From contig JAJRQB010000122.1 in the NCBI GenBank assembly GCA_024280485.1, forward strand, positions 1 through 42,595: a stretch of DNA of 42,595 nucleotides. Direction: 5' to 3'. The stretch comes from Deltaproteobacteria bacterium (GTDB taxonomy: Bacteria > Desulfobacterota > Desulfuromonadia > Desulfuromonadales > Geopsychrobacteraceae). The translations under genes were made by a program, and so were the position numbers. The notes below the pieces were generated by a model, which was given only the letters and a program-made list of their open reading frames with translations, searched no databases and was not told the DNA's origin. Below, in pieces: positions 19,066 through 35,902 of the stretch (position 1 is the first letter of the stretch; every line of letters starts with the position of its first letter).

Positions 19066-20364
19066 ATGAGAATTGGAAGAACGCTCACTCCGGCAGCTGC
19101 TCCCCTCTCTTTCGCGAATATTTTTTCGGGGATAAAGGCAGCTCTAAACGGTGACTGCGCTCAAGAGCGATTCAGGGAGGAGCTGCAGGGGTATTTTCAG
19201 GCTAAATACTGCTTCCTCGTCTCATCTGGCAAAGCTGCACTCGCGGTGATATTGGAAGCCATGAAAAACCTGCATCCAGAGCGGGATGAAGTCCTTATCC
19301 CTGCTTTAAACTGTTTTTCTGTCCCCTCCGCTATCGTACGTGCCGGGCTTAAAGTCACCCTGTGCGATATTGATGAGGAAACTCTTGATTTCGATTATGT
19401 CCAGTTGCGTGCCAAGCTCAATAATCCTCGATTACTATGTGTAATTCCCACTCATCTGTTCGGTCGACCGGCGGATATTTATCGTTTGAAAGTGATGCTT
19501 GCCGGTTCCGAGGTCATGATCATTGAGGACACGGCTCAGGCATTTGGCGGAGAATGCGCCGGACACAAACTCGGTACAATTGGTGATGTCAGTCTCTTCA
19601 GCCTAGGGCGTGGTAAGGCGCTGTCGACTGTTGAGGGTGGGATTATCCTGACCAACCAGGCAGACCTTGCCAGTCGGATTGAGAAGGTTCACGCACGCCT
19701 GCCATCCGGTAACAGGCTGCGCACTCTGAAGTTGGCCATTTATGCTCTTGCCATCACCATCCTGCAGCATCCAATCTTATTCTGGCTGCCGAACTCTCTA
19801 TCATTTCTTAAGTTGGGGCAAACAATCTACGCTCCAAGTTTCGCAATACTGAAATTCACAGCTTTTCAAGCTGGACTTGCCTACGGATGGCAACAAAAAC
19901 TCGCGCAGTTTAAAGATATCCGAAAGCGGAATGTCGCTGATCTGACTGTAATTCTTGACGATCTCAGGCAGGTTCATTATGGCCGCAATCAGGGAGAAGC
20001 CCTTAACCTGATCCGCCTGCCCTGGCATATAAAATCTCAAAGCTTGCGCTTGAAAATTCTAGAAAAAAGCAGACAATTCGGGCTGGGAATTGCCGCGATA
20101 TACCCGTTTCCGATATCTCAAATTCCCAGCCTGAAGAAGGATTTTCAACCGGAGGCCTATCCGGTCGCAGAATCCTGTACCAGAACTCTGGTCACCTTAC
20201 CGGTTCACCCGTTCGTAACTCTCAGGGATATAGCCCGGATTCAACAGTTTTTACGGAATCTGCACAAAGATAAAGAGGTAAGGAGATTGTGGCAGACGGA
20301 AGAGGATGATATCCCGGCGGATATGACTTCTCCTAAGTATTCGTTGGAAAAGGAGACCTGTTAA
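19066..20364 (+). CDS. DegT/DnrJ/EryC1-family PLP aminotransferase
   Basis: A 432-residue PLP enzyme. Motifs are VSSGKAALAVIL near the phosphate-binding site, IEDTAQAFGGE with the PLP Asp, and SLGRGKALSTVEGG with the Schiff-base lysine. The family makes amino sugars from keto-sugar nucleotides, but the extended C-terminus and unusual GRGK motif set it apart from classic sugar aminotransferases, so the substrate could instead be another small molecule. It is in tight operon with the next gene, whose ATG starts directly after this stop. Confidence 0.88.
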   Translation: MRIGRTLTPAAAPLSFANIFSGIKAALNGDCAQERFREELQGYFQAKYCFLVSSGKAALAVILEAMKNLHPERDEVLIPALNCFSVPSAIVRAGLKVTLCDIDEETLDFDYVQLRAKLNNPRLLCVIPTHLFGRPADIYRLKVMLAGSEVMIIEDTAQAFGGECAGHKLGTIGDVSLFSLGRGKALSTVEGGIILTNQADLASRIEKVHARLPSGNRLRTLKLAIYALAITILQHPILFWLPNSLSFLKLGQTIYAPSFAILKFTAFQAGLAYGWQQKLAQFKDIRKRNVADLTVILDDLRQVHYGRNQGEALNLIRLPWHIKSQSLRLKILEKSRQFGLGIAAIYPFPISQIPSLKKDFQPEAYPVAESCTRTLVTLPVHPFVTLRDIARIQQFLRNLHKDKEVRRLWQTEEDDIPADMTSPKYSLEKETC

Positions 20365-21069
20365 ATGGAAAACCATCTAGCGATCCAGCTTAAGAGAATT
20401 TTAAAAGCTGTCAAATTCGACAGGCTCTATTTTTACCTACGCGCAAATTCTTACGTTAACAAAGTTACCGTTCCGGTTGAAAAAGATCTTTCTACACTAA
20501 GGCCGCTGCAGGACGAACTGGATCAGGCCGGGGTGGAAATAGTAAAGATCACTATGACACCCGGAGCGTTAATTCAAAATTACGAAACACGGCAGTCGCT
20601 TATCTTCCCTGATGCAGAGAGGCAGGAGACCGCCATAAACTATCTAGAAAAAGGATACCATGGGATTGCGTTGGTTCGGGGGAATCATGTGAGTGGAGAC
20701 ATCTGGTACACCAGCGCAGATCCTCACAAAGAAGGGGCGGTACATCCCGATCTTAAATGGCTCAAGATCGCGTGTGGGCCTAAGGATGCATATGCTTTTG
20801 ATATGTATTTGCACCCCGACAGGCGAGGTAGGAATTCAGCGAATATGCTGCAGAATGGAATCCTGCACGAGATAGGGAAGCATGGATATACCAGAGCACT
20901 GGGTTATTTTTGGGCCGAGAATATACCCGCACTTTGGGTACATCGGACACTCCAATGGAGCGAACTGAAAAGGGTGAAAGTTACCCGGTTACTCTGTTTT
21001 CATCATTCCCATGTGAGTATTGTCGGTAAACGCAAAGAACGCTCTCGCTGGTTATATTTTAGGAACTGA
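20365..21069 (+). CDS. GNAT-family acyltransferase-like protein
   Basis: A 234-residue protein whose C-terminal half has a GNAT acetyl-CoA motif: LHPDRRGRNSANML (about residues 152-165), then an Asn-rich strand FWAENIPALWVHRTLQW typical of the end of the fold. The N-terminal part is not recognised. It is directly adjacent to the aminotransferase gene, so it may acylate that enzyme's amino product (inference). Confidence 0.7.
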   Translation: MENHLAIQLKRILKAVKFDRLYFYLRANSYVNKVTVPVEKDLSTLRPLQDELDQAGVEIVKITMTPGALIQNYETRQSLIFPDAERQETAINYLEKGYHGIALVRGNHVSGDIWYTSADPHKEGAVHPDLKWLKIACGPKDAYAFDMYLHPDRRGRNSANMLQNGILHEIGKHGYTRALGYFWAENIPALWVHRTLQWSELKRVKVTRLLCFHHSHVSIVGKRKERSRWLYFRN

Positions 21070-21114
21070 GAGAAGAAAGTTCGAAGGTGATAGCTCAACA
21101 ATTTGAGGAATTGA

Positions 21115-22203
21115 ATGTCCGAGATATCAACAGGTTGTGTATCCAGTATGGACGATTGGCTTTCCATCTCCAGCGACTGGACCAAGCTTTTAGCTAAGTC
21201 GAACGCTGCTACATATTTTCTTTCGTGGGAGTGGTTGTTCTCATGGGCTGAAATCTGTATGAGCGCAGATCGTCAGCTACACATATTGGTCTTCTATGAA
21301 AAGGGTTCGTTGATTGGAATTGCTCCATTTTACATCTTGAAACGTAAGTTCGGAATGTTCCTTGTCCGAGAGATCCGTTTTCTTGGTACGCCTGAATCAG
21401 GATCTGATTTTCTAGATGTGATAACGCAGAAAGGGCGTGAAAAAGAAATTTCAAATGGTCTTTATGATTATTTGCACGGAGAGGGACGTTCTTGCTGGGA
21501 TCAGTTGAATTTGTCAGACATGCGATCCGACAGCCTGTTTTTTCTTCACTTTAAGAATCGTCTTGATGCTGAAGGACGATATGCGGAATTAAGTCGAAGT
21601 GCATATTGTCCAGTAATGAAACTTCCGAGTACCGAGAGTGATTTATACGTAATGTTATCACCCGGATGGCGAAAGAAGTTCAAGCAGGATATGCGCGTTT
21701 CAAATCGTGATCATGATGTGTCACATGTTGTTCATAACGGATCTGAAGTTGAAAGGAAATTAGATTGCTTTTTCAAGATGTACGAAGAGAAAGGTGGTTG
21801 GCCAGGTGCTCAGCTATGTTCGATTCTGAAAAAACTTTCGCAGAAATATGCTGACCATATGCCATTTCAACTCGATTATTTATACATAGATGGCAAGCCG
21901 AAGGCTGCTCTTTTCCATTTTAAATTTAAGGGAATCATGTCCATGTATTTAATGGCAGTGGACAAACAACACAACCCAAAGATCAGCCTTGGCAACCTCC
22001 TGGTCGGCTATAGCGTCAAACGTGCAATTTTGGATGGCTATAAATATTACGATTTTCTCAAAGGGGATGAGCGTTATAAGTTCCACTGGTCCAACAGCGG
22101 TCATTGCACCCTGCAATTGAATGTTTGGCAGAAACGCCCTGTCGGGTATGGCCTGGCACTGGCGAAAATGGTGCGGCAGTCTGGAAAAATACTGTTGAGG
22201 TGA
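21115..22203 (+). CDS. CelD/BcsL-like GNAT acyltransferase
   Basis: A 362-residue protein of the CelD/BcsL acetyltransferase type (two GNAT-like lobes). Seen: an N-terminal SWEWLFSWAE stretch, a middle GWRKKFKQDMR, and a C-terminal KAALFHFKFKG, then YDFLKGDERYKFHW near the end, all typical of this family. These proteins are common in exopolysaccharide loci, where they are thought to acylate sugars. It precedes the carrier-protein cassette by 99 bp, which would fit use of a carrier-bound acyl donor. Confidence 0.8.
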   Translation: MSEISTGCVSSMDDWLSISSDWTKLLAKSNAATYFLSWEWLFSWAEICMSADRQLHILVFYEKGSLIGIAPFYILKRKFGMFLVREIRFLGTPESGSDFLDVITQKGREKEISNGLYDYLHGEGRSCWDQLNLSDMRSDSLFFLHFKNRLDAEGRYAELSRSAYCPVMKLPSTESDLYVMLSPGWRKKFKQDMRVSNRDHDVSHVVHNGSEVERKLDCFFKMYEEKGGWPGAQLCSILKKLSQKYADHMPFQLDYLYIDGKPKAALFHFKFKGIMSMYLMAVDKQHNPKISLGNLLVGYSVKRAILDGYKYYDFLKGDERYKFHWSNSGHCTLQLNVWQKRPVGYGLALAKMVRQSGKILLR

Positions 22204-22302
22204 CACTGGCTGCTGAATTGTCTATTGGCCGTACGGTTTTAAATACAGGAAGTTTGAACATATAGCATCGCTACCGAGGACTGTGAGGAAAGGGGAGACG
22301 AG

Positions 22303-22548
22303 ATGCCGACGCGAGAAAAAATCAGGCAATTTATTATGAATGAATTGGTTGCCGATGGCAGTGGGAGCGAGTTGTCCGATACGGTTCTACTCATCGATTC
22401 CGGGGTCATCGATTCCCTCGGGATCATGTCGCTGTTGGGTTTTTTGGAGGAGAATTTTTCAATTCAGATATCCGGTGAAGATCTGGTACCGGATAATTTC
22501 GCCACAATTTCGACCATCAGCGATTTTGTTGCTCAGAAAAGCCTATAG
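22303..22548 (+). CDS. Acyl/peptidyl carrier protein
   Basis: An 81-residue four-helix carrier protein. Ser38 in VIDSLG is the phosphopantetheine attachment site. It is followed after 15 bp by an acyl-CoA dehydrogenase and then an adenylation enzyme, so its cargo is probably loaded and oxidised while tethered. GGAAAGGGGAG precedes the ATG. This is not a fatty-acid-synthesis acpP by context. Confidence 0.92.
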   Translation: MPTREKIRQFIMNELVADGSGSELSDTVLLIDSGVIDSLGIMSLLGFLEENFSIQISGEDLVPDNFATISTISDFVAQKSL

Positions 22549-22563
22549 CAGTCGGGGGGGATT

Positions 22564-23709
22564 GTGGACTTTGAATTGACGGATGAGCAGAAGGTCTGGA
22601 AGGAGACGATCATCAAGTTTTCCCGGCAGGAACTGGCCTACGACATCGCGGCGGTAGAGAAGAGTGGCGAGTTCCCATGGGATGCATGGCGAAAATGTGC
22701 TGAGATGCAGATTTTGGCCATGCCCTTTGCAGAGGAGTATGGCGGCTGTGGGGTCGATTTTTTGACTACTGTTCATTCCCTGAACTCCCTTGGTTACGCA
22801 TGTAAGGATGCCGGTCTTGTTCATGCACTAACGACTCAAATCCTTTGTGGCTTGCAGATCGCTCTCTTCGGCAATGAGGCATTGAAGTTAAGGTACTTAC
22901 CCTCGCTTTGTCGTGGGGAAAAGGTTTTTGCCCAGGCGATAACCGAACCAGGCTCCGGATCCGATGCCCTGTCAATGCGTACGAAGGCTGAAAAACAGGG
23001 GGAAGCATTTATTCTCAATGGCAGTAAGACTTTCATCACCAACGGACCGATGGCCGATGTTGTTATCGTTTTTGCGGTGACTGCTCCTGAGAAAAAGACC
23101 CTTGGGGGGATATCCTGTCTCGTTGTCGAAGATGGCATGGAGGGATTCAGTAAGGGGAAGCCCCTGGAAAAGATGGGATTGACCACGCTTCAGAACGGTG
23201 AACTCTTTTTTGATAATTGTGAAGTCTCTTGCGACAGGCTCTTGGGCAAAGAAGGCCAGGGGGCCATTATCTTCAATGAATCGATGGAATGGGAACGAAG
23301 TCTTCTTCCTGCAGTGCACCTGGGAACGATGGAGAGAATCCTGGAGATTTCAGTTAAGTATGCAAAAGAGCGTAGCGCCTTCGGAAAGGCCATCGGGAAC
23401 TATCAGGCCGTCGCCAACAAGATCTCCAGAATGAAGATGAATATAGAGCTTGGAAAAGGAATCCTCTATCGCTGTGCGAGTTTAAAGGGCCGAAACAAGA
23501 GAGCGCCCCTGGACGCCTCCATATGCAAATTATTCATCAGTGAGAGTTTGAAACAGGCATGTCTTGATGCCGTGCAGATACATGGTGGCTATGGATTCAT
23601 GTGCGAATACGAGATCGAAAGGGATCTGCGTGACAGCATCGCCTCAACCATCTATTCCGGAACATCGGAGCTTCAGCATAATATCATCGCACGATTTATG
23701 GGGTTGTGA
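22564..23709 (+). CDS. Acyl-CoA dehydrogenase-family flavoprotein acting on a carrier-bound substrate
   Basis: A 381-residue FAD enzyme with all family motifs: AITEPGSGSDALS near residue 125, a GSKTFITNG strand near 153, RSAFGKAIGNYQAV near 270-283 and HGGYGFMCEYEIERDLRDS near 340-358. The usual catalytic Glu position (IYEGTS in MCAD) is Ser365 (IYSGTSE), while Glu244 in MEWERS sits where isovaleryl-CoA dehydrogenase carries its base. Both features recall PltE/RedW-type prolyl-carrier-protein dehydrogenases. Start is a GTG after GGGGGG. Flanked by a carrier protein and an adenylation gene, so it probably oxidises a tethered aminoacyl or acyl group. Confidence 0.9.
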   Translation: MDFELTDEQKVWKETIIKFSRQELAYDIAAVEKSGEFPWDAWRKCAEMQILAMPFAEEYGGCGVDFLTTVHSLNSLGYACKDAGLVHALTTQILCGLQIALFGNEALKLRYLPSLCRGEKVFAQAITEPGSGSDALSMRTKAEKQGEAFILNGSKTFITNGPMADVVIVFAVTAPEKKTLGGISCLVVEDGMEGFSKGKPLEKMGLTTLQNGELFFDNCEVSCDRLLGKEGQGAIIFNESMEWERSLLPAVHLGTMERILEISVKYAKERSAFGKAIGNYQAVANKISRMKMNIELGKGILYRCASLKGRNKRAPLDASICKLFISESLKQACLDAVQIHGGYGFMCEYEIERDLRDSIASTIYSGTSELQHNIIARFMGL

Positions 23710-23711
23710 AA

Positions 23712-25301
23712 ATGGCGGATGTCGTTCTGCTACAGCAATATCTGGATGGGGCGGTTTTTGAAACCCCGGAAAAAATCGCCGTGACCGACGGGAACAATTC
23801 CCTCTGTTTCCGTGAGCTGTCGGTTTTATCCAGTAAAATGGCTCATGGCTTGAAGGCTAGGGGAGTAACGAGACAGGACCGAGTGGTGATCTGCCTGCAG
23901 CGCTCAGTCAGCTTTCTGCCCTCGGTCCTGGGGATTCTCAAGGCGGACGCTATTTATGTTCCCCTTGATCACAAGACCCCGGCAGAGCGATGGGCATACA
24001 TTCTCGAAGATGCCGCGCCCAAAGTGCTCATTTGTGATAGCAAGACGATTCCCGTGGCGAAGGATGCCATGGCCCGGATCGGGGTAGAAATTCCGCTCAT
24101 GGTCGTCTGTAGTCAAGGTGAAATTCAAGCGGAGTTTGCGGGGGAGGTCATGGGGCTTGAGGCAACCGGTTGTTGCGACGGAAGTGTTCCGAGCTATTTA
24201 AACCATGAAAACGACCTCGCATATATCTTGTACACATCCGGGTCAACAGGCCGGCCCAAAGGAGTGATGATTTCACATGCGAACGTTAAGGCATATATAG
24301 ATTGGGCCACCGACTTTTTCAATATAGGTTCATAAGATAAGCTGCTTGGGACAGCGCCATTTCATTTCGACATGTCAACCTTTGATATTTATTGCTCGCT
24401 TAAGTCCGGAGCGACCTTTTGTATTGCAGGTGAGATTCAGTCTCTTTTCCCGGGAAAGCTGGTTGAATTTATTGAGCAGCAGCAGGTGACCCTGTGGAAA
24501 GGTGTTTCCTCACTCCTCATGTATATGTCGAGATCTGGAGTTCTCAAGCAAGGGTCGATGCCAACATTGAGACAGGTGCTTTTTGCGGGGGAGACTCTCC
24601 CGACTAAATATTTGATCGATTGGATGTCCGTATTTCCGGAAAAAACTTTCTACAATGCTTATGGACCAACTGAGACGACCGGTGTTTCTACCTGTTATCT
24701 GGTTAATAGTTTACCCGAAGGTCCCCATGTGCGGATACCGATCGGTGTACCCCGTCAGGGGACCAGGGTTTTTATTCTCACTGATGAGCATGTCGAGGTG
24801 CCCGTGGGGGAAGTCGGAGAATTATGTATCGCGGGTCACGGTTTGGCCAACGGTTATCTGAACGATCCTGAAAAAACCGCCAGGGCCTTTGTTTCAAGCT
24901 CGCTGGATGGCCCAGGCGAGCGTATCTATAAAACCGGAGATAGGGCCCGCCTGTTGCCGGATGGCAATCTGGAATATCTCGGCCGGAAAGACCGGCAGCT
25001 CAAGTTCATGGGATACCGGATTGAGGCAGGGGAGGTTGAACACGCACTTTTGTCGATCCCACAGGTCAAGGATACGGCCGTAGATTTGGTTGAATCGAGG
25101 CTCAACGAGGGGGTTCTTGAGTTGGCGGCCTTTCTGGAATCTGATGAAGACATTGATATCGCGCTGATTTTTTCCGAGATGAAAAAGAGGCTGCCGAACT
25201 ACATGATCCCAAAACGTTTCATACGGGTTGCAAAGTTGCCGCGTTGTGAGCGTGGCAAGATAAAACGGGGTGCCCTTATGGAGCATCATTCGGCCATATG
25301 A
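23712..25301 (+). pseudogene. AMP-forming adenylation enzyme (amino acid/acyl ligase) interrupted by in-frame TAA
   Basis: Read through, this is a 529-residue ANL-superfamily enzyme. Motifs include YILYTSGSTGRPKG (171-184), GTAPFHFDMSTFD (213-225), YNAYGPTETTG, YKTGDRARLLPDG, GRKDRQLKFMGYRIE and the C-terminal catalytic Lys in RGKIKRG. A TAA at 24333-24335 (codon 208) splits it, with both halves in one frame and no other lesion; a restart at the ATG at 24372 would give a C-terminal piece lacking the P-loop. Asp220 of FDMS is at the position that binds the amino group in amino-acid-activating domains. It would load the carrier protein at 22303. It resembles the exosortase-A-associated ligase family. 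The stop may be a real mutation or a sequence error. Confidence 0.85.
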
Positions 25302-26430
25302 GCGGGGGCAGGATGGACAAGATTGCAGTACAAAGGATCATAGATCTGCTGAAAGAGATAAAGGGAATCAATACCTTTTACGATCTACATGTGCATCCCT
25401 TTGAAGTGATGTATGCCCCCTTACGGTACCACGCTTCGCCGGAGACCAAAGGGTTGTTCAGTGCCGGGACCTCAGAGTATCTATCGCCCGTAATCAACGA
25501 TCTGGACTTACGAAAGAGGACGGTCAGGGCAGAAAATATCACTCATAAAGGTTGCTGGCGAAATTTGCCCTTCTGAATTCAAGGCGTGTGTACGCTCATA
25601 CCGGTCCGAGGGTTATGGGTGACCAGATGGGATTGAGCGCAATCGACAAAATTCTCTTGCTCCCCATTATGGGCATCGAGGGTGCCGGTGACGGGCAATT
25701 GAGGTCGATGAAGGAGATGTTTGGCTCCGATGATCGTTTCTTATTTGGTTATTGCCTGCCTAACGACATTCCTGACGATAAGGTTGCAGATGACGTCAAA
25801 CGAGCCATGGATAGTTACGATATCCAGGTCTTGAAAATTCACCCTGCGGTAACAGGCATAGATCTCTCCACTCAAAAGGGAATAGCGCGGGTCGAATCAA
25901 TCCTTGATGCCTCCCGACAGACCAGGCTGAAAGTGGTCATTCACGGTGGCAGGAGTCCTGATTGCGAAAACGTCGAGACCATGTCCTACGGAACCGTCAA
26001 TGACCTGCAGCATGTCGATTGGTCGATCACTTCTGAAACGATCATTATTGCTCACAGCGGGTGCTTTGGTCATACCTTCGGGGAGGTGCAGGGCGAGGTG
26101 CTTCCCATGTTAAATCGTCTTCTCCGGCGGCATTCAAATCTGGCGGTAGATACGTCCGGGGTCGGGTTTGAGGTCCTTTGCCAGATCTTGAAGACTATCG
26201 ATCCGCAAAGAATCGTGTTTGGGTCTGATTCACTCTATGAAGTGCAATGGTCGGTAATGGTCAAACTCTGGTGCGCCTTGGAGCAAACTGTGTCGAGGCC
26301 AGAAGATACTTTGCTCCGTATTGCCAGTCGCAATCCCGCCAATTTGATCAGCATGGCGAAGAGCTATGCACAGCAAGAAAATCGTCGGGTTGGCGGTGTC
26401 TGCCAAAGCGCAGGCGGTCTTGGGCTTTAG
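25298..26430 (+). pseudogene. Amidohydrolase (PF04909-like) split by a frameshift
   Basis: Two overlapping frames together make one TIM-barrel amidohydrolase of about 375 residues. The first (25298-25576) has the metal motif FYDLHVHPFE with His31 and His33; the second (25552-26430) continues with VVIHGGRS, IIAHSGCFGH and a late FGSDSLYE Asp. The frame change must lie within about 25547-25576, near CATAAAGGTTG, and equals a one-base error. The start overlaps the adenylation gene stop as ATGA, so it belongs to the same cassette. Its reaction is unknown; the family contains decarboxylases and hydrolases. Confidence 0.8.
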
Positions 26431-26453
26431 CCCGACCCTGGAACGATGGATAA

Positions 26454-27119
26454 ATGTTTTGGAGATCAAAAGGATTGAAGAAAGCCAATTTCTTAGTCAT
26501 GCCAGCGCTGTTGCTGATCTTTGCGGCACTGCTTTTAGCGGATAATAGAATGGGTCACTATTCTCGAATGATCTTAAGGGAAGCGATTGAAAATGATCTG
26601 GTGAATATCGACAAGTGGCCGGAATCTAGAACTTTTGATGCTATGTATATTCTTGGTGGCCACCATAGGTCACAGAAGTACAAGTTCGAAACTGCTTCGA
26701 GGATTCATAAACAAAAGATCTGCCGAAATATTATTTTTTTGAGTGTTGAAGATACCACTGCATTTGACCAAAATTTATCAAGAAACTTTACCAATGATGA
26801 ATGGTCATTGTTGAAAATGAAAAATATGGGTATTCCCGCATCTGATGTTATGGCATTGACCATGGAAGAGGGGATGCTAGGGACAATGAATGAAGCTGAA
26901 AATGTAGCTAAGTTGGTCATGCGGAGGGGGTATGCAAGTTTATTAATAGTTGCAGCTCCTTATCATTCACAACGAGTGAGGATAAGTTATGAACATTTTC
27001 TTAAAAATTCTAATATTGATCTCGTTATTTTAGGTTCTGGTGAACAGGTATATTTGAAAAGTTTAGTTTTGGAGTGGATAAAGTTGAAACTGTACAAAAT
27101 ATTTCTGTTAATTGTTTAG
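26454..27119 (+). CDS. DUF218/YdcF-like (SanA/ElyC) membrane-anchored protein
   Basis: A 221-residue protein with one N-terminal membrane helix (about 12-30) and a DUF218 domain: MYILGGHH near 60, a GTMNEAENV stretch near 145 and VAAPYHSQRVRISYEHF near 165-182. Such proteins act at the envelope in carbohydrate-polymer or lipid-carrier metabolism, but their reaction is not settled. The sequence is AT-richer than its neighbours, suggesting separate origin. The ATG at 26454 has a weak ribosome-binding site; TTG at 26475 after AAAAGGA is an alternative. Confidence 0.72.
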   Translation: MFWRSKGLKKANFLVMPALLLIFAALLLADNRMGHYSRMILREAIENDLVNIDKWPESRTFDAMYILGGHHRSQKYKFETASRIHKQKICRNIIFLSVEDTTAFDQNLSRNFTNDEWSLLKMKNMGIPASDVMALTMEEGMLGTMNEAENVAKLVMRRGYASLLIVAAPYHSQRVRISYEHFLKNSNIDLVILGSGEQVYLKSLVLEWIKLKLYKIFLLIV

Positions 27120-33824: not shown

Positions 33825-34823
33825 ATGAGCGAACAGCTGATCCTGACCAATCATGCCGGTGCCGACCGAAGCCGTACCTGGGAAAGAACTTCGTTCCGGC
33901 CGCAATTCGAGAGGTTCTCTGCCGTCGAGATCATCGACAATTGCTACAAGGCATTCCAGCTCTTTCGTCTCCGCAAGGAGTATCAGGTCGTGGTCCTTGG
34001 TGGAGGGGCACAGTACGACCTGTTTTATCTGATTCTGCAGCGGTTATGGCCGTTGCATGTCCGACCGGTGGTTAAGATTGATTGCCTCTGGTATCGGGCA
34101 TCCCCACTGAGGCATTTCTGCAAGAAAATGCTTTTTCGATGTCTGGACAGAGTTGTCGCGCGTTATGTGGTCTGGTGCCAACGTGAAATCGATGATTACT
34201 CACAGGCCTTCGATCTACCAGAAAGCAAATTCATCTTTATCCCTTATCACACAACCATTGATGACATCTTTGAAATCAAGGACCGCGGTTATCTCTTTAG
34301 TGGCGGTAACTTTGCCCGTGATTATCAGACCCTGGTTGAGGCTGTCCGAGGACTTGCATTGCAAGTAATTATCGCCTGTACGAACAGCAGGGCCGTTGAA
34401 CAGCTTGATCTTCCAGACAATGTCACGGTTGTCGGTGTCAGCGATCTGGAATTCAGGAAGCTGATGGCCGAGTCCGGGATCAATGTGCTTGCACTGGATT
34501 CGTCATTATTGCATTCGGGCGGTCAGCAGACGTTTTTAAATGCCATGGCCATGGGAAAGCCGGTCATCGTCACTGATCCTGAGGCTGGACGCGGATATAT
34601 CGAGAATGGTGTCGACGGTATTCTTGTGCCGGGTGGAGATCACCGCAGTTTACGGGTGGCCTTGTTGTCTTTGATTGATGATCCAGAGTATGCCGCTCGG
34701 CTTGGAACTCGCGCCAGGGAAAAAGCGCAGCAGATGGATACCGAAAGTCATCTCGCGGCAATTTCCGATCTTGCCCTGGGTGCCTCGATTCAAACCGTAA
34801 ATAGCCTCAATCCTGCGGTTTAA
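33825..34823 (+). CDS. GT-B glycosyltransferase (family 4-like)
   Basis: A 332-residue protein with a GT-B C-terminal half: LFSGGNFARDYQTLVEA, HSGGQQTFLNAMAMGKPVI and NGVDGILVPGGD. The N-terminal half is short and divergent (QVVVLGGGAQYDLFYLIL), so donor and acceptor are unknown. It starts after the 272-bp gap with GAGGGGACC upstream; its stop overlaps the next start as TAATG. Confidence 0.83.
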   Translation: MSEQLILTNHAGADRSRTWERTSFRPQFERFSAVEIIDNCYKAFQLFRLRKEYQVVVLGGGAQYDLFYLILQRLWPLHVRPVVKIDCLWYRASPLRHFCKKMLFRCLDRVVARYVVWCQREIDDYSQAFDLPESKFIFIPYHTTIDDIFEIKDRGYLFSGGNFARDYQTLVEAVRGLALQVIIACTNSRAVEQLDLPDNVTVVGVSDLEFRKLMAESGINVLALDSSLLHSGGQQTFLNAMAMGKPVIVTDPEAGRGYIENGVDGILVPGGDHRSLRVALLSLIDDPEYAARLGTRAREKAQQMDTESHLAAISDLALGASIQTVNSLNPAV

Positions 34824-35902
34824 TGCCGATGGATAACTCGACTCAAGAGATGTGCGGACGTATTGCTGAGGGCATAAGCCAGAACTGGATTCCCGCTGGA
34901 AATGAGATCAACCCTGATTTCGGCAAATTTTCGGTCAAGCAACTTCTGGGACAGGGTGCAACATCCCTCAGTTATCAGATTCAGTTTGCTGCTGAGGAGG
35001 GTGCCGGTCGGAGTTTCTTTATCAAGAAATATACTGATGAGACAAGGACGGGTCTGAGCCAGTTAGAGAGAGATTATAAGGCTGGAAACTGGCTGTCAGC
35101 CGAAATCGGCAGTCAATCTGCTCTCAGCATTGATGCTCCAGTGTTGATGATTCTGGAAGACCGGGTTTTGGTGACACCTTATGTGTCTGGCCAGAATTTA
35201 AGCCCATATTTTTTCAAGAAACTGCGTTGGCATTTTATTTCAAAAGGTGATTTGTCTGAACTAAAGGGTATTGCCGGTGACATCGGCAGAGGGCTGGCGG
35301 ATTTGCAAAATCTTCCCATAGAGACTTCCGGCCTGCTGTTCGACAAGAGCGATCCGCAACTCATGTTCTCCCGGCTTAAGGTTGAACTCGAAAATTTCCG
35401 GGTCTTCTATTCAGTCCGGAATATTTGTCAGGGCCTGGTCGAAAAAGTCATAAGTCGTATGGAAGCTTGTTTGGAGGAATACCTCTTAGGTGAGCCAACC
35501 TGTTGCTTTCAGCACTGTGACTATATTTTGCAGAATTTCATTTGGGGGGATAACGGCAAGCTCCATTTGTTCGATTTCGCAAATTCAAGAGTCGGCACCC
35601 CTTACTTTGATATTGCGCATTTGATCAATTCTTTCGAGGATCTGACTTATTTGAAAACGGTTTCAGGTTCGATTGTCGATCAATTCATACGTGCTTTTTT
35701 ACAACCTTTTTTGGAAAAAGACTCGTTCAAGACAAAGTTGCTCTGTGTGACAAGGGCTTATTTTCAATTACATTCCGGCAGAATTGTTTTAGCTGGGAAA
35801 GGCGTAGCGAGGAAGAGGTCATGGCGTAATACTGTCATGGTCGATCCAGAGAAAAGGCTCAAGGAAAAACTATTGGTGTTTCTAGAAGAACTTGAAAGCT
35901 GA
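34823..35902 (+). CDS. Aminoglycoside-phosphotransferase-like kinase
   Basis: A 359-residue protein-kinase-fold enzyme. An N-lobe loop LLGQGATSLSYQI and Lys in FFIKKYT match the nucleotide-binding part; FQHCDYILQNFIWGD is the catalytic loop and LFDFANSRVGTPYFDIAHLI the metal-binding loop, as in APH/choline kinases. In a polysaccharide locus it may phosphorylate a sugar, lipid carrier or polymer end rather than an antibiotic (inference). It overlaps the preceding stop by one base and could also start at the next codon pair, ATG at 34829. Confidence 0.78.
   Translation: MPMDNSTQEMCGRIAEGISQNWIPAGNEINPDFGKFSVKQLLGQGATSLSYQIQFAAEEGAGRSFFIKKYTDETRTGLSQLERDYKAGNWLSAEIGSQSALSIDAPVLMILEDRVLVTPYVSGQNLSPYFFKKLRWHFISKGDLSELKGIAGDIGRGLADLQNLPIETSGLLFDKSDPQLMFSRLKVELENFRVFYSVRNICQGLVEKVISRMEACLEEYLLGEPTCCFQHCDYILQNFIWGDNGKLHLFDFANSRVGTPYFDIAHLINSFEDLTYLKTVSGSIVDQFIRAFLQPFLEKDSFKTKLLCVTRAYFQLHSGRIVLAGKGVARKRSWRNTVMVDPEKRLKEKLLVFLEELES

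What the first reader, a model, noticed from the sequence alone, without database searches (positions are those of the whole stretch)
22303..26430. Carrier-protein acyl-modification cassette embedded in a polysaccharide locus
ACP, an acyl-CoA dehydrogenase with PltE-like features, an amino-acid-type adenylation enzyme and an amidohydrolase are consecutive. The ACP/dehydrogenase/adenylation trio is what makes pyrrole-2-carboxyl-carrier protein from proline in pyoluteorin and prodiginine pathways. Flanking acyltransferase-fold genes could move the product onto sugar. A polysaccharide decorated with a dehydrogenated aminoacyl (possibly pyrrole-type) group would be new to me.
Basis: partly seen in the sequence, partly recalled or inferred. 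Interest (0 to 1): 0.8.

Follow-up and report, generated by a model that had tools for sequence, protein, structure and literature searches.

The report
Aminoacyl-ACP dehydrogenase cassette in polysaccharide locus
A set of genes that loads an amino acid onto a small carrier protein, removes hydrogen from it and probably hands it to a sugar sits inside a bacterial surface-polysaccharide locus; the set is real and recurs in relatives, but its loading enzyme does not look proline-specific, so the proposed pyrrole group is unlikely here.

Summary
The adenylation gene carries an in-frame stop and the amidohydrolase changes frame; intact copies exist in relatives. Homologues occur in 19 of 136 searched genomes of the order. 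An amidohydrolase family (15 genomes) and a GNAT acyltransferase family (17 genomes) were found in that order only in those 19. In 11 of 19 an electron-transfer flavoprotein gene lies beside the cassette. The adenylation pocket, DMFK-LAA, departs from the stand-alone proline code DL(L/F)Y-LAL-VC at four or five of eight variable positions, with lysine at 278 as in an aspartate-type domain. Two other pocket classes exist: DLFN, and a proline-type class in loci outside the order. Best reading: a thiotemplated aminoacyl-dehydrogenation and sugar-acylation module for a non-proline, perhaps acidic, amino acid. Pyrrole is unlikely for this window but open for the proline-type sister loci. No product is known.

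The parts
19066..20364 (+). DegT/DnrJ/EryC1 aminotransferase, candidate maker of the amino sugar acceptor
   Evidence: PF01041 157 bits; DegT-type ORF cluster found in 12 of 22 regions compared
20365..21069 (+). GNAT-like acyltransferase, candidate enzyme that moves the acyl group to sugar
   Evidence: no Pfam or NCBIfam match; weak GNAT matches in PDB by profile, best E 0.0035, and GNAT chains by predicted fold, model pLDDT 69.8; family found in 17 of 136 order genomes, all of them dehydrogenase-positive
21115..22203 (+). FemAB/CelD-like Acetyltransf_6 protein; role uncertain
   Evidence: PF13480; its ORF cluster appears in 3 of 22 regions: window, G048, G052
22303..22548 (+). acyl/peptidyl carrier protein
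   Evidence: PF00550; the 7 PDB matches are carrier proteins, two rows of them PltL and one PigG; Ser38 invariant in 17 of 17
22564..23709 (+). aminoacyl-carrier-protein dehydrogenase, open reading frame
   Evidence: closest solved relative prolyl-ACP dehydrogenase 4irn, 361 bits against 270 for the next; clade with AnaB, PltE and 6cxt_B 100/100; Glu244 in SMEWER, YSGT for YEGT
23706..25301 (+). amino-acid adenylation enzyme, interrupted by an in-frame TAA at 24333-24335
   Evidence: pocket DMFKLAA
25298..25576 (+). amidohydrolase, N-terminal piece with the HxH metal motif, in another frame from the rest
   Evidence: aligned to homologues
25552..26430 (+). amidohydrolase, C-terminal piece (KIHP, IHGG, IAHSG, GSD motifs)
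   Evidence: PF04909 38.6 bits; family found in 15 of 136 order genomes, all dehydrogenase-positive

Best explanation
This is a thiotemplated amino-acid modification and transfer module of a surface-polysaccharide locus. Shown by sequence: a carrier protein, an amino-acid adenylation enzyme, a dehydrogenase of the carrier-bound prolyl dehydrogenase lineage, a PF04909 amidohydrolase and a GNAT-like protein that occur together in relatives. Inferred: the adenylation enzyme loads an amino acid that is not proline, perhaps an acidic one, onto the carrier. The dehydrogenase takes the alpha proton with Glu244 and passes hydride to FAD, giving a 2,3-dehydroaminoacyl thioester; electrons leave through ETF, for which many relatives keep a gene beside the cassette. 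The amidohydrolase, whose fold relatives include lactonases, hydratases and decarboxylases of carboxylated substrates, then changes the acyl group. The GNAT-like protein transfers it to an amino sugar made by the DegT aminotransferase. In the window's own strain the pathway is either decayed or the draft sequence is wrong there, since two of its genes are broken.
For: Dehydrogenase clade with AnaB/PltE/6cxt_B and Glu244 in 22 of 22 cassette-type rows. Amino-acid type adenylation with D235. Carrier, dehydrogenase and adenylation genes together in relatives. Amidohydrolase family in 15 and GNAT family in 17 of 136 order genomes, all inside the 19 dehydrogenase-positive genomes; 8 of the 15 and 11 of the 17 are genomes whose own sequence was not in the profile. 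ETF genes beside the cassette in 11 of 19 order genomes (Pfam). Amidohydrolase present in 13 of 13 order genomes with a readable lysine pocket and 0 of 4 with the asparagine pocket. Polysaccharide genes around it. Transfer of a carrier-bound oxidised amino acid to a sugar has a precedent in clorobiocin (PMC11218499 passage).
Against: Two of the genes are broken in this window, and the next adenylation match in the genome scores 213 bits against 789. No GNAT-family match in G054 or G127 (G127's locus is a contig of about 4.3 kb), so transfer by that protein is not universal. The GNAT model is of low confidence. An acidic substrate rests mainly on one pocket lysine. The glutamate position alone is no proof: 8 ordinary rows (7 different) of another dehydrogenase type also have Glu there and lack the YEGT glutamate. 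The tree program warned that its longest inner joins, that of the cassette clade to 8 ordinary rows among them, may be false. Presence and absence in related genomes are not independent events, since the lysine-pocket dehydrogenases form one clade. No ETF gene was found in the window or beside the cassette in its three nearest relatives, G048, G052 and G054.
Confidence: 0.62

Rival explanations
1. Pyrrole reading of the first reader: L-proline is loaded, oxidised by four electrons to pyrrole-2-carboxyl-carrier protein and moved to a sugar.
For: Dehydrogenase lineage; carrier relatives include PltL and PigG; sister loci with an exact proline-type pocket exist, G276, G435, G415 and L047, and G276's lies among polysaccharide-gene homologues.
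Against: Pocket of this clade differs from the proline code at four or five of eight variable positions, with Lys at 278 in every member read (code from PMC3874040 passages). Extra amidohydrolase in this clade.
Confidence: 0.07
2. Small secondary metabolite: the cassette makes a free or lipid-linked amino-acid-derived compound and only happens to sit in polysaccharide loci.
For: The characterised relatives named here act in small-molecule pathways; Verrucomicrobia relatives sit beside long adenylation-type proteins (L048-L050).
Against: In the order's loci no ORF longer than about 600 aa clustered with the adenylation enzymes (PKS genes were not searched for). Sugar transferase, DegT, export or glycosyltransferase homologues are in the flanks of 16 of 19 order loci.
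Confidence: 0.2
3. Reverse direction: with its ETF the flavoenzyme reduces a dehydroaminoacyl-carrier protein.
For: The ETF alpha of L045 carries a ferredoxin domain and its best model is acryloyl-CoA reductase ETF, 366 bits against a cut-off of 600.
Against: I see nothing in the cassette that would make the double bond first; the one other ETF alpha scanned (L043) shows no ferredoxin domain and lies next to a CCG-type Fe-S protein.
Confidence: 0.08
4. Dead cassette or sequence error, with no function in this strain.
For: In-frame stop and frame change in two neighbouring genes; with G054 as outgroup the window has more own changes than G048 in adenylation (59 to 31), amidohydrolase (48 to 21) and carrier (11 to 2), less so in dehydrogenase (26 to 18).
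Against: Against G052 the adenylation counts are 41 to 46 and the dehydrogenase 19 to 29, amidohydrolase 41 to 29, carrier 8 to 3; carrier, dehydrogenase and GNAT genes are open. This bears on the strain, not on the family, and does not exclude the best explanation.
Confidence: 0.4

Closest known systems
Thiotemplated prolyl-carrier-protein dehydrogenation (AnaB, PltE, RedW, PigA, Bmp3 pathways)
   Same: Carrier protein, stand-alone adenylation enzyme and a dehydrogenase that groups with AnaB, PltE and 6cxt_B and has the same catalytic glutamate.
   Different: Adenylation pocket not proline-type; amidohydrolase and GNAT-like partner; ETF genes beside it in many relatives; polysaccharide locus.
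Clorobiocin CloN3/CloN4/CloN5 with acyltransferase CloN7 (PMC11218499 passage)
   Same: A carrier-bound oxidised amino acid is moved to a deoxysugar.
   Different: One antibiotic sugar and a proline substrate; here a polysaccharide locus and another pocket. No sequence comparison with Clo proteins was made.
Exosortase A-associated acyl-CoA ligase TIGR03098 set
   Same: An adenylate-forming enzyme in XrtA loci; proline-type sister loci G435 and G415 hold relatives of the associated hydrolases TIGR03100/03101 below cut-off.
   Different: The window enzyme scores 240 bits against a cut-off of 592 for TIGR03098.
DltA/DltC D-alanylation of teichoic acids
   Same: Stand-alone adenylation enzyme and carrier protein for an envelope polymer (recalled).
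   Different: DltA model 300 bits against a cut-off of 560; dehydrogenase and GNAT-like protein; DltB/DltD were not searched for.

Membership tests
Carrier-bound aminoacyl (prolyl-type) dehydrogenases | groups with AnaB/PltE/6cxt_B apart from CoA enzymes | tested here: met
   25-row side at 100/100 against 30 ordinary rows (26 different) plus 5lnx; the program warns of long branches
Carrier-bound aminoacyl (prolyl-type) dehydrogenases | catalytic Glu at the AnaB/PltE position and no YEGT glutamate | tested here: met
   Glu244 in 22 of 22 and YSGT or YAGT in 22 of 22; 6af6 differs from 5zw0 at this glutamate. Not exclusive: 8 ordinary rows also have Glu there and GAGT
Pyrrole-2-carboxyl-carrier-protein pathway | adenylation enzyme with stand-alone proline code DL(L/F)YLALVCK | tested here: not met
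   DMFKLAA, then TTGVS; L047, G276, G435, G415 read exactly and L072 at six of eight in the same alignments
Pyrrole-2-carboxyl-carrier-protein pathway | four-electron oxidation to pyrrole | not testable with these tools
   needs enzyme assay
NCBIfam PigA / RedW equivalogs | score over curated cut-off | tested here: not met
   358 against 500 and 317 against 650 bits; the RedW model also gives 298 bits to an ordinary enzyme of the same genome
TIGR03098 exosortase A-associated ligase | score over curated cut-off | tested here: not met
   240 against 592 bits
XrtA/PEP-CTERM polysaccharide locus | XrtA-type markers above cut-off | tested here: met
   TIGR03013, 03027, 03007, 03016, 03006, 03019 above; TIGR03018, 03088, 03097 below. 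The exosortase gene itself was not sought
GNAT superfamily (20365-21069) | GNAT fold | tested here: inconclusive
   GNAT chains head Foldseek, best E 5.7e-6, from a model of pLDDT 69.8
PF04909 amidohydrolases | score over gathering cut-off and TIM-barrel fold | tested here: met
   38.6 bits window piece, 61.3 bits L039 homologue; L039 model pLDDT 82.8, VIA-align Z 23.0, rmsd 2.9, 255 aligned to 4dlf

The most novel reading that the evidence does not exclude
A previously undescribed kind of polysaccharide decoration: anaerobic Desulfuromonadales attach carrier-protein-made, dehydrogenated amino acids to amino sugars. The chemistry is set by adenylation pocket classes (lysine, asparagine and proline-type). 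The lysine class uses an acidic amino acid that a dedicated amidohydrolase further hydrates, decarboxylates or cyclises, and electrons flow to the quinone pool through a cassette-encoded ETF and Fe-S protein. The proline-type sister loci may make pyrrole-decorated polysaccharide.
Probability: 0.35. Interest if true: 0.8.

Novelty: new variant of a known kind. Interest (0 to 1): 0.62.

Why it matters
If true, NRPS-like carrier chemistry is used to tailor bacterial surface polysaccharides, in several amino-acid versions that can be told apart by pocket residues. It would give a gene handle for finding polysaccharides with unusual aminoacyl groups in anaerobes, and a dehydrogenase family that works with its own ETF instead of oxygen.

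Tried and rejected
Ordinary acyl-CoA dehydrogenase: not favoured by the tree and the PDB ranking. Fatty-acid or CoA ligase: the amino-acid adenylation model passes its cut-off and the amino-group aspartate is present. NCBIfam PigA and RedW scores as proof: dropped, both are below cut-off and the RedW model does not separate ordinary enzymes; the matching control scan for PigA did not run. Recoding at the stop: the residue at that place varies among relatives, so I see no case for it. Repeats over 21000-27000: one overlapping inverted pair only. Second copy in the genome: no further adenylation match above 213 bits. Literature on such a polysaccharide: searches listed no paper and search 70 one unrelated paper; these are narrow term searches of an open-licence library. 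PDB profile search with the amidohydrolase: best E 0.38. Plasmid relatives: of five stretches fetched two had no annotation, one Streptomyces stretch showed carrier, condensation and AMP-binding genes, and two made up a Pseudoalteromonas prodigiosin-type cluster that served as the proline-side control. Phylum surveys scored at most four and five candidates per genome, so their counts may be low.
Full report
What is there. The window is contig C137 of a 4.14 Mb draft genome in 178 contigs. Upstream lie a DegT aminotransferase, a small GNAT-like protein and an Acetyltransf_6 protein. The locus is of XrtA/PEP-CTERM polysaccharide type. The adenylation gene has an in-frame TAA and the amidohydrolase changes frame; open copies exist in relatives.

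The dehydrogenase. Its nearest solved relative is prolyl-ACP dehydrogenase 4irn, 361 bits, then 270 for a CoA enzyme; PltE is eighth with 232. With a profile of 22 homologues the first four chains are 4irn, PltE 5zw0, its variant 6af6 and 6cxt_B, before the CoA enzymes. I take 6cxt_B to be Bmp3 from the title of a cited paper seen in PMC10849742 passages; the PDB label itself says butyryl-CoA dehydrogenase. In a tree of 56 rows (52 different) the 22 cassette-type rows and these three references form one side at 100/100, with 30 ordinary rows (26 different) and 5lnx on the other. Four long rows inside the clade have unsure inner places, and the program warns that joins of long branches may be false. 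Glu244 lies where PltE carries the residue changed in 6af6 and where, as far as passages say, a catalytic glutamate is known for AnaB and Bmp3 (PMC10849742). The glutamate alone does not separate: 8 ordinary rows also have it.

Spread and company. At E 1e-90 the dehydrogenase is found in 19 of 136 genomes of the order; in the window's genus it is found in 1 of 9, the window's own. A phylum sample of 395 gave 23 matches, with at most four candidates scored per genome. Six of the 23 (G000, G418, G198, G276, G435, G415) show the YSGT motif; of the other 17, 14 have a second dehydrogenase next to them and 3 do not (from 1.5 kb flanks). In the order a carrier-protein gene was seen on the same stretch in 18 of 19 genomes and an adenylation gene in 19 of 19, two of them cut by the contig end; in G113 the contig begins 1 kb before the dehydrogenase. 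The amidohydrolase profile finds 15 of 136 order genomes at E 1e-30, and 1 of 395 phylum genomes, the window's own (the latter with at most five candidates per genome). The GNAT profile finds 17 of 136 at E 1e-15. All 15 and all 17 are among the 19; 8 of the 15 and 11 of the 17 are genomes not used to build the profiles. Fisher tests give 1e-16 and 9e-20, but the genomes are related and these are not independent draws. In G070 the GNAT gene is about 15 kb away, and in G124 and G128 amidohydrolase and GNAT are on another contig than the dehydrogenase. Homologues of the window's polysaccharide genes lie in the fetched flanks of 16 of 19 order loci; the exceptions are G057 (9.7 kb contig), G127 (4.3 kb contig) and G124, where one ORF clusters with glycosyltransferases.

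Electron acceptor. ETF alpha or beta genes lie beside the cassette in 11 of the 19 order genomes (G037, G057, G059, G045, G070, G124, G133, G116, G127 as a fragment, G110, G111) and a CCG-domain Fe-S protein in six of them (G037, G057, G133, G045, G110, G111) (domains of examples). That the latter is membrane-bound and quinone-linked is inferred from weak family matches. No such gene was found in the window or in the stretches of G048, G052, G054, G051, G074, G128 or G113, some of which are short. This fits a dehydrogenase in anaerobes that hands electrons to quinone; the direction is inferred.

Which amino acid. In one alignment with a prodigiosin-cluster enzyme (L072) and LgrA, the pocket of the window reads D235 M236 F239 K278 L299 A301 A322, followed by YGPTETTGVS. 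Numbering is that of PheA, whose sequence was not in the alignment; code positions are listed in PMC11253843 (passage). Positions 330 and 331 read G, V by length, or V, S by the alignment columns, which put a gap in the proline-type rows. Stand-alone proline enzymes have L(L/F)YLALVC at the variable positions (PMC3874040 passages). Three classes appear. Lysine class, DMFK: the window and every member of its clade that could be read. Asparagine class, DLFN(L/I/H)S(L/V/I): G045, G110, G111, G113, G418. Proline-type class, DL(L/F)YLAL then VC: L047, G276, G435, G415. L048-L050 read DIFY and fit none. Lysine at 278 is seen in an aspartate domain (DLTKVGHI, PMC3207962 table passage). The amidohydrolase is present in 13 of 13 order genomes with a readable lysine pocket and 0 of 4 with the asparagine pocket; G124 and G128 have it but their pockets could not be read. 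So the amidohydrolase most likely acts on the acyl group. Its fold relatives are lactonases, decarboxylases, a hydratase and plain hydrolases, which does not settle the reaction.

Sister loci. The proline-type trio in G276 lies with homologues of a sugar transferase, glucose-1-phosphate cytidylyltransferase and sugar dehydrogenase, each below its curated cut-off; those of G435 and G415 lie near relatives of exosortase A-associated hydrolases, also below cut-off.

Verdict. I file it as a new variant of thiotemplated aminoacyl dehydrogenation, tied to polysaccharide loci.

Noticed in passing
window 24333-24335 and 25298-26430: In-frame stop in the adenylation gene and a frame change in the amidohydrolase, two adjacent lesions; decay or draft-sequence error cannot be told apart.
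   Followed up: partly
L110 9938-12959; L111 9632-13255; L112 4046-7564: Proline-type (DLFYLAL..VC) carrier/dehydrogenase/adenylation trios in G276, G435, G415 beside polysaccharide- or exosortase-type gene homologues: candidate pyrrole-decorated polysaccharides.
   Followed up: partly
L105 7603-16123; L106 7290-15934: Asparagine-pocket cassettes with GNAT, CCG Fe-S protein and ETF but no amidohydrolase; the pocket resembles a cysteine code that I recall, untested.
   Followed up: partly
L043 3649-5950; L045 4822-7098: Pair of PLP decarboxylase-family and PylC-like ATP-grasp genes near the cassette in four regions (G037, G045, L043, L045).
   Followed up: no
L037 1-4928: A record titled Ignavibacteria carries a Desulfuromonadales-like cassette with ETF and CCG Fe-S genes: transfer or misbinning.
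   Followed up: no
L048, L049, L050: Verrucomicrobiota loci with a related dehydrogenase and adenylation enzymes next to long adenylation-type proteins, pocket DIFY(L/K)GV: unknown small-molecule clusters.
   Followed up: no
window 34823-35899: APH-type phosphotransferase-family protein (PF01636) inside the polysaccharide locus; by its place more likely a sugar or lipid kinase than a resistance gene (inference).
   Followed up: no
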